IMG/VR virus record: IMGVR_UViG_3300029448_000328
Coordinates: 1-27,658 of that record
Strand: one strand, 5' to 3'
DNA length: 27,658 nt
DNA from: a virus
Shown here piece after piece: positions 4,159-17,026 of this stretch; the stretch's first letter is position 1; each line of letters opens with the position of its first letter. Position numbers and translations under genes: made by a program. The notes under the pieces were generated by a model. It was not told where the DNA came from and made no database searches. It saw only the letters and a list, made by a program, of their open reading frames with translations.

Positions 4159-6091
4159 TCATTTCTCCTATCATCTTTGCAAAGATTGCTGCTTTCTCAG
4201 GGTCGTTAACTAACTGGTCAGGGTCAATATCCATTGACTTTGCAATCTCTCTAATAATGCTATGCCATTTTACAAAAGGTGCTAAGAATTGATTTGATGC
4301 AACTTGCATAAATGTCATCAATCTTTGAGACCTTACTTCTTTCTGCATTAAAGAACTTGTGCCTTGTGCTTTGACATCTAAGTCTCCTTGTATATCTGGA
4401 ATATCTTTATTAAATTGCATATTCCATTGAAATAAAGTTTCACCTAATGGCCTTAATAAATAATCATCTACATTTTTAACAACTGTTTTTATATTTAGTG
4501 CTGCAGCTCCCATTAACATAGACATGCCTGATGCTGTTCTTGTAGTAGACATAACTCCAGTTGTGCCATGTGAATAAGATGGTATACCTGTAGCTTCATC
4601 TGCTAATTGTCTAAACTTGTCAAATATCTGCATATTCTCAGGTGCAGTATTTGGAAATCTTAAACCATGTAGTGCTTGTCCTGTTTGACCACTTTGTCTT
4701 CTAAATATTTTTCCGGGATAGATAGTCATATCTTGCCCAGGGACTAACATAGTTTCATCTACATCAAAAACTAAATTACCTGCTAATGCTAAGTTATCAA
4801 TAGCCATTCTTGCATGACCATTCATAATTGTTTGTGCATCATCCATATTCTCAGGTATGCCCACGCCAAAGAATTGATAAGGATTGATTTCATAAGGACA
4901 TACCATAAAAGGATTTCTTGCAGGTGTAAAAGGATTTAAAACTAATCTAAGTATTTGGCCATTTGAAATCCAAGCGTTAATTTGAACTTCATCTAACTCA
5001 TCTGAAATATCATCAGGCATCTCAATACCTGCTTCTTCTACTAAGGCTTTATCTATTGTGCCCCAGTATTCTAAAACTTCAAATCTATTTTTATTATACT
5101 CTTCTTGATTCTCTCTATCAAACAATGCAGTTTCATAACTTCTTGTTTCATAGTTTGGACCACCTGCTAATAATTCTTCTATAGCTGATTTTCTAAAGAA
5201 AGGTCTATTAGCTAAATCTCTAACCTGCCCCCTGTTGTATATATGTCTTTGTATGACATAATCTGCATCTTCAATATTAATTGCATCAGGGTCAGGGTAT
5301 AAATCCCAACAACTCACTGCTTCTATTCTAGGAACTAACTTAGTGCTAGGAGTATATTCTCTTTCTCCTGCATCATTTAATGACCATTTATGCAAAGATT
5401 GTTCATAGTTAAATGGACCTTTTAGTATTCCTGTGCCCAATAAACACATTTCGAATAACACATGACGCATTACTGAAATAGCATGGGATTCTTCTAATTG
5501 GTCATGAATTAGCTTTTGCATATTACGTGCAGCTTCTTCAGCAGGTTCTATCTGTGGCATAGTTTTTAAATCAGGTGCAGGACCTTTTTCAAAACCTACG
5601 TTAGCATATTTTTCTGCTAGACCATTTAAAATACTATCAGCAGTAGCTCCAGGTTCTACGTTTCTACCGTCTCCCTCAAAACCATAAATATCCTCCATGC
5701 GAGGATTCTTCATGTTATCTGGTTTTAAATGGGCGTACTGCTCCACTCCACTCGGGTCAGTAGTAGGGGAAACAGTAATAGGAAATTTTCCTTGAGAAAA
5801 TAAAACCTCTATTAATTGTCCGTATGCAGCGAGAACTTTTGTCTTTGTTACTTTAACAAAAACTTTAGACTTTTCAGAATCACGAAAAGCCATATCAGAA
5901 CCATAGATACCTCTATAGTTTCTGTATGCTCTTAACCATCTTTTTTCGTCATAAAGACGTGCTTGTTCTGATTCCTTTAGTCTAGATTCAATAAGATAAC
6001 CTAAATTACTATAGGATTCATCTTTCTCCTCCGATAAAGAATTAACTTCATCAGATTCAGATGTCAAGCCACTCGTATTAGAATGTGGCAT
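3965..6091 (-). CDS. Portal protein
   Basis: This 708-residue protein is the head-tail connector that forms the DNA entry ring. Visible hallmarks of podovirus portals are the early ESRLKESEQARLYDEKRWLR helix, the VLEYWGTIDKALVEE segment, and the long conserved core from NPYQFFGVGIPENMDD through GIPSYSHGTTGVMSTTRTAS to the helical LNIKTVVKNVDDYLLRPLGE region. Size is in the normal range. GAGAGG lies five bases before the ATG. The last 65 or so residues are low-complexity Gly/Gln/Thr/Pro, exactly where another gene is overprinted in a different frame, so this tail may be constrained mainly by the other gene. Confidence 0.92.
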   Translation of the reverse strand: MPHSNTSGLTSESDEVNSLSEEKDESYSNLGYLIESRLKESEQARLYDEKRWLRAYRNYRGIYGSDMAFRDSEKSKVFVKVTKTKVLAAYGQLIEVLFSQGKFPITVSPTTDPSGVEQYAHLKPDNMKNPRMEDIYGFEGDGRNVEPGATADSILNGLAEKYANVGFEKGPAPDLKTMPQIEPAEEAARNMQKLIHDQLEESHAISVMRHVLFEMCLLGTGILKGPFNYEQSLHKWSLNDAGEREYTPSTKLVPRIEAVSCWDLYPDPDAINIEDADYVIQRHIYNRGQVRDLANRPFFRKSAIEELLAGGPNYETRSYETALFDRENQEEYNKNRFEVLEYWGTIDKALVEEAGIEMPDDISDELDEVQINAWISNGQILRLVLNPFTPARNPFMVCPYEINPYQFFGVGIPENMDDAQTIMNGHARMAIDNLALAGNLVFDVDETMLVPGQDMTIYPGKIFRRQSGQTGQALHGLRFPNTAPENMQIFDKFRQLADEATGIPSYSHGTTGVMSTTRTASGMSMLMGAAALNIKTVVKNVDDYLLRPLGETLFQWNMQFNKDIPDIQGDLDVKAQGTSSLMQKEVRSQRLMTFMQVASNQFLAPFVKWHSIIREIAKSMDIDPDQLVNDPEKAAIFAKMIGEMNANQQAEGNNQQQGGMGATGGVPAGATVTDTQGSGGGNIGVGTPQTPGESGFTAPNTQPQGPTE

Positions 6092-13096: not shown

Positions 13097-13125
13097 ATTA
13101 TACTCCCTTATATCACATCTGTCAA
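13097..13125 (-). promoter_or_regulatory. Perfect sigma70 promoter, leftward (late operon)
   Basis: Read on the minus strand this is TTGACA, exactly 17 bases, then TATAAT. It points at the structural operon that begins at 12997, with transcription expected to start near 13090. Both hexamers and the spacing match the bacterial sigma70 consensus fully, so strong use by host RNA polymerase is expected. None of the six TAACATATGTTA-type palindromes lies within this promoter or its leader. Confidence 0.88.
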
Positions 13126-13152
13126 GTAAAATATGAAATTTTTATTTTTTTA
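13126..13152. promoter_or_regulatory. AT-rich spacer between divergent promoters
   Basis: These 27 bases separate the two -35 boxes and consist almost only of A and T, with runs of T on the plus strand. Such sequence can act as an UP element for the alpha subunit of RNA polymerase for one or both promoters. Confidence 0.5.
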
Positions 13153-13181
13153 TTGACAGAATCGTCATAGGGGTGTATAAT
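13153..13181 (+). promoter_or_regulatory. Perfect sigma70 promoter, rightward (early region)
   Basis: The plus strand reads TTGACA, 17 bases, TATAAT. Transcription should start near 13188 and enter the early region. The first palindromic operator (13208-13223) lies about 20 bases downstream of the start point, a place where a bound repressor would block initiation or early elongation. Confidence 0.88.
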
Positions 13182-15612: not shown

Positions 15613-15657
15613 AGGGGGGATTGCCCTTTGCTAGTCATGGTGTCTGTAATCCCCCTT
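15613..15657 (+). other. Hairpin after the ParB-like gene
   Basis: AGGGGGGATT (15613-15622) and AATCCCCCTT (15648-15657) can form a stem of ten pairs (one G-U) with a 25-base loop. There is no T-run after it, so it is at best a weak terminator. It could protect the 3' end of the mRNA. Confidence 0.45.
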
Positions 15658-15803
15658 ATCCCCTTGAAATACTCCCCAAATAATATACAATAGATTCAAT
15701 GATTAATTTGTTTTGTAGGAAATTGCAAAGTGGCTTGTTCAATCTGATTAAATTCCTTCCTCCTTTAGTGGTAGTTTCTGAGTTGTGCAAATTAATTAAT
15801 TTA

Positions 15804-15867: not shown

Positions 15868-15896
15868 TTGACATCTAACTAATTTTCCCCTAAAAT
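15868..15896 (+). promoter_or_regulatory. Sigma70 promoter before the 230-aa gene
   Basis: TTGACA, 17 bases, TAAAAT (one mismatch). Transcription should begin near 15903. A perfect operator palindrome follows at 15913-15928. Confidence 0.8.
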
Positions 15897-15943: not shown

Positions 15944-16636
15944 ATGGCAAAGACCATAGAAATAGAGGCAGAACAACACGAAGAACAAATTGATTCTAAG
16001 TTGTTAAGTCTCATTGAGGATAATATAACTGAGATAAGAAATAGTGAGAATAGTAATACGACTATCAAGCTAATTGATTATGTATCTCAAAATGTTTTTC
16101 CTAAATTCAAGAATAAAGACAAAGACAAAGAGATAAAAGGTGTTAGAAAATATCTTCTAGCCGTCTATCCTTTTGATGATTCAATCGGAGTATCGAGAGG
16201 TGCTTACGATATGATGAATCAAAGAGTATCTAAGGGTGGTCATTTAGTATTCAAGAAAAGAATTACTATTGATAAGGATAAACTCTTAGATAAAAAGGGG
16301 GATAGAATTGTCATCTCTAAACTAGATGAGTTGCATAATAAATTCATTGACAAGAAACCCAAAGCGATTGAGGTTGTTGATGAGCCAATTACTATGCCAC
16401 AGAATGACGATGAGTATATTCCTAGTTCTGATTTTAATGAGATATCTGATTCTTATAGACAAGCAGATGTTTTAATGGAAACATTTCAATCTTTAATGAA
16501 TTTGACTGATGCTGATTTTTCAGCTATCTTAGAGGAATATGATTTACAAACATTCGTCAAGGATAACTACAAACCCCTCAAACATATCTTTGATAGGGTG
16601 TTGGAATCAGGGAAGCAACAAAGCGAGGTTGCTTAA
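15944..16636 (+). CDS. Acidic early protein, 230 aa
   Basis: This 230-residue protein is the first gene after an operator-controlled promoter. It is acidic and charged. Residues about 10-60 are helical, residues 70-120 contain VRKYLLAVYPFDDSIGVSRG and KGGHLVFKKRITIDKDKL (possibly mixed alpha/beta), and an acidic linker leads to a helical end. GAGGT lies six bases before the ATG. I recognise no domain. The immediate-early position suggests host takeover or regulation, by inference only. A structured RNA segment follows the stop codon directly. Confidence 0.7.
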   Translation: MAKTIEIEAEQHEEQIDSKLLSLIEDNITEIRNSENSNTTIKLIDYVSQNVFPKFKNKDKDKEIKGVRKYLLAVYPFDDSIGVSRGAYDMMNQRVSKGGHLVFKKRITIDKDKLLDKKGDRIVISKLDELHNKFIDKKPKAIEVVDEPITMPQNDDEYIPSSDFNEISDSYRQADVLMETFQSLMNLTDADFSAILEEYDLQTFVKDNYKPLKHIFDRVLESGKQQSEVA

Positions 16637-16801
16637 CGTAGGTCAAAGTATGTGTGGTCCTATCCACATCACTTCGGTGAGAGGAATATCACTTAATCTC
16701 TGTTGCAAGTGGATTATGCGCAGAGTTCTTTGACAAAGACGGCTAGGGTAGTGCCGAGCAGTGAGATTCTGTCAAAACTACCCACTACGAAAGGGTATAT
16801 C
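16637..16801 (+). ncRNA. Candidate structured RNA / RNA switch in 5' leader
   Basis: This gene-free segment is clearly richer in G and C (72 of 160 bases at 16641-16800 by my count) than its surroundings. It can form hairpins TGTGG/CCACA (16653-16668), TCAC-TTCG-GTGA (16669-16680) and CTCTG/CAGAG (16698-16725), all enclosed by GTCAAAG (16642-16648) pairing with CTTTGAC (16728-16734). The same strand can instead pair downstream: TTTGACA (16729-16735) with TGTCAAA (16770-16776). GGGTAGT (16746-16752) can pair with ACTACCC (16777-16783), making a pseudoknot. Alternatively TACCC (16779-16783) pairs with GGGTA (16793-16797) and hides the AAAGGG ribosome binding site. It matches no riboswitch class I know. 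Confidence 0.6.
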
Positions 16802-17026
16802 ATGTTAGAAGTATCAAAGACTAAATTAAAAATTATAGCTTACAGATTACGAGACGCAGAAAAGATTCTGAGTTCCATGCAACAACAAATATTTGATATA
16901 CGAATGAAAGAAGTTGAGTTGATTGTTAGACAAGCCAATCAAGACTTATTAAACATATTAGAAGGAAACGATTTAAGAGATGTCGAAAAAGAAATCGAAA
17001 GATTACAAAGAAGTCTCACAAACTGA
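16802..17026 (+). CDS. Small helical coiled-coil protein, 74 aa
   Basis: This 74-residue protein (MLEVSKTKLKIIAYRLRDAE and onward) is almost entirely amphipathic helix with heptad-like spacing, so it probably forms a coiled-coil dimer. I chose this ATG because AAAGGG lies six bases upstream. An open extension back to a TTG at 16703 runs through the structured RNA and is rejected. It is the gene whose ribosome binding site the RNA structure could hide. It overlaps the next gene by 47 bases. Function is unknown. Confidence 0.7.
   Translation: MLEVSKTKLKIIAYRLRDAEKILSSMQQQIFDIRMKEVELIVRQANQDLLNILEGNDLRDVEKEIERLQRSLTN

What the first reader, a model, noticed from the sequence alone, without database searches (positions are those of the whole stretch)
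16637..16801. Possible new RNA switch upstream of a small early gene
A 165-base gene-free stretch is GC-rich for this genome and can form several hairpins, one with a UUCG tetraloop, inside a 7-bp closing helix (16642-16648 with 16728-16734). The 3' strand of that helix can instead pair with 16770-16776, and ACTACCC at 16777-16783 can either pair with GGGTAGT at 16746-16752 or release, letting TACCC pair with the ribosome binding site at 16793-16797. Two mutually exclusive states ending at a ribosome binding site are the architecture of a translational riboswitch. I match it to no class I know.
Basis: partly seen in the sequence, partly recalled or inferred. Interest (0 to 1): 0.8.

Follow-up and report, generated by a model that had tools for sequence, protein, structure and literature searches.

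The report
Shuffled structured RNA cassettes in phages
The flagged stretch is not one riboswitch but two separate folded RNAs, drawn from a large, apparently uncatalogued set of folded RNA cassettes that a group of abundant ocean viruses of bacteria swap among themselves between genes; what the RNAs do is not yet known.

Summary
In detail: 16637-16801 is a non-coding, GC-rich (45% against 33%), structured gap with no Rfam match. The riboswitch reading does not hold. Relatives show two independent RNA modules. Module E (16642-16734) has a closing helix, an inner hairpin and a pseudoknot, all with compensatory changes among six viral contigs. Module A (16740-16783) is a compact H-type pseudoknot (GGC/GCC stem; loop GGGTAGT pairs ACTACCC) found in about 75 viral contigs with many unrelated inserts in its third loop; both stems covary. 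E and A occur without each other, so the proposed alternative pairing between them is not conserved, and the ribosome-site pairing is lost in all nine relatives that have the site. In other contigs A lies in arrays of unrelated structured RNA cassettes (e.g. L034 1-870, L140 1-700) that are reshuffled between phages. Several arrays end in an intrinsic terminator before the next gene. The window is an HMO-2011-type phage (closest isolate Pelagibacter phage HTVC033P). Function is inferred, not shown: I favour autonomous RNA effectors, perhaps decoys against host defence; intercistronic mRNA control is the main rival. The system appears new; the literature check covered open-access papers only.

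The parts
15868..15896 (+). promoter-like site TTGACA-17-TAAAAT upstream of the gene before the RNA region
   Evidence: consensus scan, 11 of 12; the region as a whole has no clear excess of such sites over shuffles, so suggestive only
15944..16636 (+). gene 1, 230 aa, no Pfam match; fixed left border of the RNA island, 47-92% identical in 12 viral contigs
16637..16740 (+). module E, a structured RNA cassette; relatives in L167 (=L004), L144, L230, L232, L233
   Evidence: model R1: six loci at E below 1e-21, no others below 0.7
16642..16734 (+). module E helix P1: 16642-16648 with 16728-16734
   Evidence: compensatory changes at two pairs; poorly kept in the three distant relatives
16662..16714 (+). 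module E pseudoknot: ATCCAC 16662-16667 with GTGGAT 16709-16714
   Evidence: A-U, G-U and G-C variants of the first pair; all cells paired
16670..16679 (+). UUCG hairpin of module E; enlarged to CACTA..TAGTG in L230 and absent in L144, L232, L233
16698..16725 (+). module E helix P3: CTCTG 16698-16702 with CAGAG 16721-16725
   Evidence: three of five pairs change on both sides, 100% paired
16736..16789 (+). module A, H-type pseudoknot cassette
   Evidence: about 75 viral contigs; in tandem in L004
16740..16756 (+). module A stem S1: CGGC 16740-16743 with GCCG 16753-16756; two-base loop 16744-16745
   Evidence: outermost pair U-A, C-G, A-U; innermost C-G to U-A
16746..16783 (+). module A stem S2: GGGTAGT 16746-16752 with ACTACCC 16777-16783
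   Evidence: 100% paired in 29 copies; G-C to A-U on both sides at two pairs (L230, L235, L240)
16757..16776 (+). variable insert of module A (hairpin GCAG..CTGT in the window); replaced by unrelated sequences of about 9-82 nt in other copies
16792..16797 (+). ribosome-binding site (AGGGTA here, AGGATA in nine of nine relatives)
16802..17026 (+). gene 2, 74 aa, no Pfam match; right border in most relatives, replaced or displaced by other genes in L003, L005, L006
16980..17198 (+). gene 3, 72 aa, weak winged-helix similarity (below cut-off)
15613..15660 (+). module F: another conserved hairpin-forming segment in the gap after the 332-aa gene; reappears directly 3' of module E in L004

Best explanation
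16637-16801 holds two autonomous structured RNA cassettes, E and A, between two conserved genes of an HMO-2011-type marine phage. They belong to a larger stock of cassettes, several of which are built as a constant frame (for A the GGC/GCC + GGGTAGT/ACTACCC pseudoknot; for another family an AAATTTA/TAAGTTT closing stem) with an exchangeable inside. The cassettes are shuffled between phages singly or as arrays of several. Shown by sequence comparison: the folds, the compensatory changes, the independence of the modules, the exchange, the sense orientation and the lack of coding. Inferred: they are transcribed with the neighbouring genes and act as folded RNAs in their own right, most likely in trans by binding host (or phage) RNA-binding proteins or RNAs, with turnover driven by an arms race, i.e. 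a counter-defence repertoire of RNA decoys or inhibitors. Not shown: transcription, any partner, any effect on phage growth. The anatomy I hold at about 0.95; the confidence below is for the functional reading.
For: Covariation: module A 4 of 11 pairs changed on both sides, 97.8% paired; module E 6 of 21; another array module (AAATTTCCGTAAGGAG...) 12 of 28. Exchange: the same interval carries A alone (L005-L008), C+A (L011), C+D+A (L002), other+D+A (L003), other+B+other+A (L010), E+A (window), E+F+gene+B+D+A+A (L004), although gene 1 is 79-92% identical to the window's in these (56% in L011). In L055 and L108 flanks about 92% identical surround swapped hairpin tips and a swapped module-A insert. 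One insert is found in three variants of the A frame. Arrays: L034, L140, L159, L163, L194 and others share modules in different orders. RNA rather than DNA function: the next long ORF lies on the same strand for 70 of 76 copies. Independence from a downstream gene: arrays in L140, L165, L191, L192, L194 end in an intrinsic terminator. Phage-specific so far: the 13 hits among 84,980 prokaryote species lack the 5' arm. Precedent for phage RNA mimicry of a defence RNA: pseudo-ToxI of phage PhiTE (PMC3475682).
Against: No host target, no host RNA resembling a module, and no defence system was identified; the decoy role rests on turnover and arrangement only. In 36 of 87 copies module A lies within 60 nt of a Shine-Dalgarno-ATG, as in the window, which also fits a cis role in translation or mRNA stability. 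Rapid exchange can also come from neutral recombination at a permissive gap. The S2 sequence GGGTAGT is nearly invariant across copies, partly because most were found by searching for it.
Confidence: 0.4

Rival explanations
1. The modules are cis-acting intercistronic or leader elements: folded barriers that protect or process the early polycistronic mRNA, or set translation of the next gene, with many structures serving equally well and therefore freely exchangeable.
For: Sense orientation with the next gene, and 36 of 87 copies within 60 nt of a Shine-Dalgarno-ATG; in the window E and A sit between genes of what looks like one operon; modules E in L232 and L233 lie directly before a ribosome site.
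Against: Several arrays are followed by a terminator and a promoter-like site rather than by a gene; pseudoknots with conserved loops and arrays of up to about 900 nt are more than a simple barrier needs; E is missing in most relatives without change of the flanking genes.
Confidence: 0.3
2. Selfish or mobile DNA: the segments spread as recombination cassettes and fold only because hairpins help their movement (as attC sites of integrons do).
For: Clear exchange of cassettes and of tips inside frames.
Against: Strand bias (70 of 76 co-oriented) and pseudoknots with compensatory changes including G-U intermediates point to RNA; no common target-site duplication or integrase site was noticed, though none was searched for systematically.
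Confidence: 0.12
3. Phage RNAs that act on RNA polymerase (as the put RNAs of phage HK022 do) so that it reads through terminators at the array ends.
For: Arrays in several contigs lie just before intrinsic terminators.
Against: Many copies, including the window's, are not followed by a terminator; tandem arrays of unrelated folds are not needed for this. The comparison rests on memory and was not tested.
Confidence: 0.07
4. The first reader's translational riboswitch with two exclusive states across 16637-16801.
For: The pairings exist in the window letters.
Against: E and A occur separately, and the ribosome-site pairing is lost in nine of nine relatives.
Confidence: 0.03

Closest known systems
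Type III toxin-antitoxin RNA antitoxins (ToxI) and the pseudo-ToxI of phage PhiTE (PMC3475682)
   Same: Short H-type pseudoknots, tandem arrangement, phage-borne non-coding RNA evolving by expansion and recombination.
   Different: ToxI arrays repeat one unit of about 36 nt next to a toxin gene or mimic one; here the units are unrelated to each other, carry exchangeable inserts, and no toxin gene was recognised next to those examined.
Riboswitches of marine phages (glutamine riboswitch of the tmRNA region in Melnitz, PMC9004378)
   Same: Structured RNA in marine phage genomes near genes.
   Different: No Rfam riboswitch match; module not tied to one gene; no conserved alternative state.
Comparative-genomics candidate structured RNAs (e.g. 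PMC2864571)
   Same: Found by covariation, function open.
   Different: Those are described as separate motifs (my understanding); here many motifs are shuffled as cassettes with constant frames and variable insides.
Integron cassette arrays (from memory)
   Same: Arrays of exchangeable units with folded borders.
   Different: Units here are non-coding; no integron integrase was noticed beside them (not searched for systematically).

Membership tests
translational riboswitch | conserved aptamer upstream of genes of one pathway | tested here: not met
   modules A and E stand before different genes, and A in arrays closed by a terminator
translational riboswitch | conserved alternative pairing that hides the ribosome site | tested here: not met
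   ribosome-site pairing absent in nine of nine relatives; E-A pairing impossible where modules occur apart
translational riboswitch | ligand binding | not testable with these tools
   needs in-line or SHAPE probing
any Rfam 15 family | covariance-model score above the curated threshold | tested here: not met
   window and 13 array loci: none; permissive searches gave only chance-level hits
type III RNA antitoxin (ToxI-like) | H-type pseudoknot RNA | tested here: met
   both module A stems covary
type III RNA antitoxin (ToxI-like) | tandem copies of one repeat | tested here: not met
   one copy in the window, two in L004, L034, L189; neighbours are unrelated modules
type III RNA antitoxin (ToxI-like) | cognate ToxN-like endoribonuclease gene or binding | tested here: inconclusive
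   window neighbours have no Pfam toxin match; genes beside other arrays and binding not tested
tRNA or tmRNA | detected by ARAGORN | tested here: not met
   none in the window or 19 array loci
HMO-2011-type phage (the genome of the window) | primase, DnaB-type helicase and family A DNA polymerase in order, similar to HMO-2011 and HTVC033P | tested here: met

The most novel reading that the evidence does not exclude
Marine phages carry a combinatorial, rapidly exchanged repertoire of structured RNA effectors, with constant scaffolds holding interchangeable specificity loops, that disarm host defences or reprogramme host RNA-binding proteins: an RNA counterpart of anti-CRISPR loci.
Probability: 0.3. 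Interest if true: 0.95.

Novelty: categorically new. Interest (0 to 1): 0.78.

Why it matters
Phage counter-defence and host take-over are studied almost only as proteins. Here a group of ocean phages appears to carry many unannotated, structured RNAs that are exchanged as cassettes, some of them as several hundred nucleotides of non-coding RNA beside the replication genes. If they are trans-acting they would be a new layer of phage-host conflict; if they act in cis they would still be a large new set of RNA folds and a natural example of scaffold-and-insert RNA evolution. They can be tested, since relatives of these phages are in culture.

Tried and rejected
Rfam at gathering and permissive thresholds: nothing. 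Similarity search of the region and of an array among 50,697 annotated phages: nothing. Module A in prokaryote genomes: 13 exact pattern hits without the GGC arm, four of them one shared sequence that looks coding; 1 of 399 genomes of one phylum, again that kind. Coding reading of the gap or of module A: rejected. tRNA or tmRNA: none. Module E model over 68 sources: only the six known copies. Sequence homologues of the modules in HTVC033P: none, although that isolate has similar unannotated structured gaps. The window's own insert (GCAGTGARATTCTGTCA) occurs only in the A frame (the one other hit, L245, shows no such frame), so not every insert has been seen to change frame. Literature searches for such arrays found nothing comparable in open-access papers; subscription journals are not covered.

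Full report
What is in the window. G000 is a virus record of 27,658 bases. Its primase, helicase and DNA polymerase genes identify an HMO-2011-type phage; the closest isolate is Pelagibacter phage HTVC033P. The gap 16637-16801 lies between a 230-aa gene and a 74-aa gene of unknown function. It is GC-rich (45.5% against 33%) and folds, but not better than many shuffles (z = -1.4). No Rfam family matches.

Relatives resolve the gap into modules. Protein searches gave 12 and 13 viral loci for the two flanking genes. Between the same genes the non-coding DNA ranges from about 70 nt (L007, L008) to an insertion of more than 1 kb that includes a gene (L004), and it is mosaic. The common element is the 3' part, module A: GGCTNGGGTAGTGCC, a variable insert, then AAAACTACCC. 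It is the sole element in L005-L008, is doubled in L004, and in L015 is followed by another module. The 5' part of the window's gap, module E, is shared with L004 and, more distantly, L144, L230, L232 and L233. A covariance model of E finds only these six among 68 sources.

Module A is a pseudoknot. A pattern scan found 76 stretches in viral contigs; 67 distinct copies with the full frame were listed. In 84,980 prokaryote species the same pattern gave 13 hits, none with the 5' GGC arm. To avoid fixing the stem by the search, I searched with one insert only: L235, L236 and L240 carry the same insert in a frame with both stems changed in step (GGT/ACC and GAGTAGT/ACTACTC), and L239/L241 have GGATA/TATCC. 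L230 has AGGTAGT/ACTACCT. On 29 aligned copies 97.8% of cells pair, four of eleven pairs change on both sides, and the covariation score exceeds all 500 shuffles and every slid control. Stem two is spanned by a two-base loop, as in classical H-type pseudoknots (established knowledge); the insert takes the place of the third loop.

Module E is a separate structured RNA. Six sequences support the closing helix (two compensated pairs, weak in the three distant relatives), an inner helix P3 (three compensated pairs, 100% paired) and a pseudoknot ATCCAC/GTGGAT with A-U, G-U and G-C forms. The UUCG hairpin is an optional extension: longer in L230 and missing in L144, L232 and L233.

The proposed switch fails. 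The alternative helix would join E to A, but each occurs without the other. The ribosome-site pairing needs GGGTA, which only the window has; nine of nine relatives have GGATA.

The wider system. In many contigs module A is one element of a non-coding array. Pairwise matches show blocks of about 50-130 nt that recur in different orders. One block, with an AAATTTA/TAAGTTT closing stem, has a three-way junction with 12 of 28 pairs compensated in seven sequences; the same closing stem holds entirely different interiors in other contigs. In L055 and L108, whose flanks are about 92% identical, a 19-bp hairpin has a different tip, another hairpin is present or absent, and the module-A insert is replaced. 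So exchange acts on whole modules and on the insides of modules. The next ORF of 100 codons or more is on the same strand as module A in 70 of 76 cases. In 36 of 87 cases a Shine-Dalgarno-ATG follows within 60 nt; in others the array ends in an intrinsic terminator, in L140, L192 and L194 just before the primase gene. Module A is not coding, and no tRNA was found.

Reading. What is shown: two independent structured RNAs in the window, drawn from an exchangeable stock found so far only in viral contigs. What is inferred: they work as RNAs in their own right. Arrays closed by terminators, many unrelated folds at one site, and fast exchange between otherwise similar phages fit a counter-defence or host-control repertoire better than gene-specific riboswitches. 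I put that at 0.4, and an intercistronic mRNA role at 0.3. The nearest documented precedent is the pseudo-ToxI RNA of phage PhiTE, which mimics a host antitoxin RNA (PMC3475682); membership in that family is not claimed, because the tandem-repeat feature was tested and not met.

Limits. Most copies of A were found through its conserved sequence, so the constancy of stem two is partly a search effect. Expected chance hits were not computed for every scan. The alignments are small and counts are of sequences, not events. ORF calls in the contigs are mechanical. Literature coverage is open-access only. No expression data were available. The rating 'categorically new' refers to the architecture (shuffled arrays of unrelated structured RNA cassettes with constant frames and exchangeable insides), which I know from no described system; if the function proves to be a known one, it would move to a new variant of a known kind.

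Noticed in passing
15613-15660: Hairpin-forming segment after the 332-aa gene (GGGGGATTGCCC...GTAATCCCCC) that reappears directly 3' of module E in L004: a further module in the same phage.
   Followed up: partly
13097-13181: Two perfect sigma-70-like promoters (TTGACA-17-TATAAT) back to back between the leftward and rightward gene blocks, followed to about 13640 by many repeats of the type ACATATGTTA; probably the early control region.
   Followed up: no
L055 island 1453-1540 and L108 island 838-900 (island coordinates): A 19-bp hairpin with identical stem but a different tip in two phages with about 92% identical flanks.
   Followed up: partly
L109 about 4700-4820: tRNA-like segment (GCATGGCCAAATGGCTGAGG ... 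GTTCAAATCCCC) next to a module-A island, not called by ARAGORN; possibly a tRNA mimic.
   Followed up: partly
L210 2069-2284 and 4217-4400 (HTVC033P): Unannotated structured gaps in a cultured Pelagibacter phage, one closed by a GGGGTAG/CTACCCC stem; not similar in sequence to the window's modules but a practical test system.
   Followed up: partly
L140 655-720; islands of L194 and L192 near their 3' ends: The 3' arm of the array terminator (CTTGACTTTTT) doubles as the -35 box of a promoter-like site before the primase gene.
   Followed up: no
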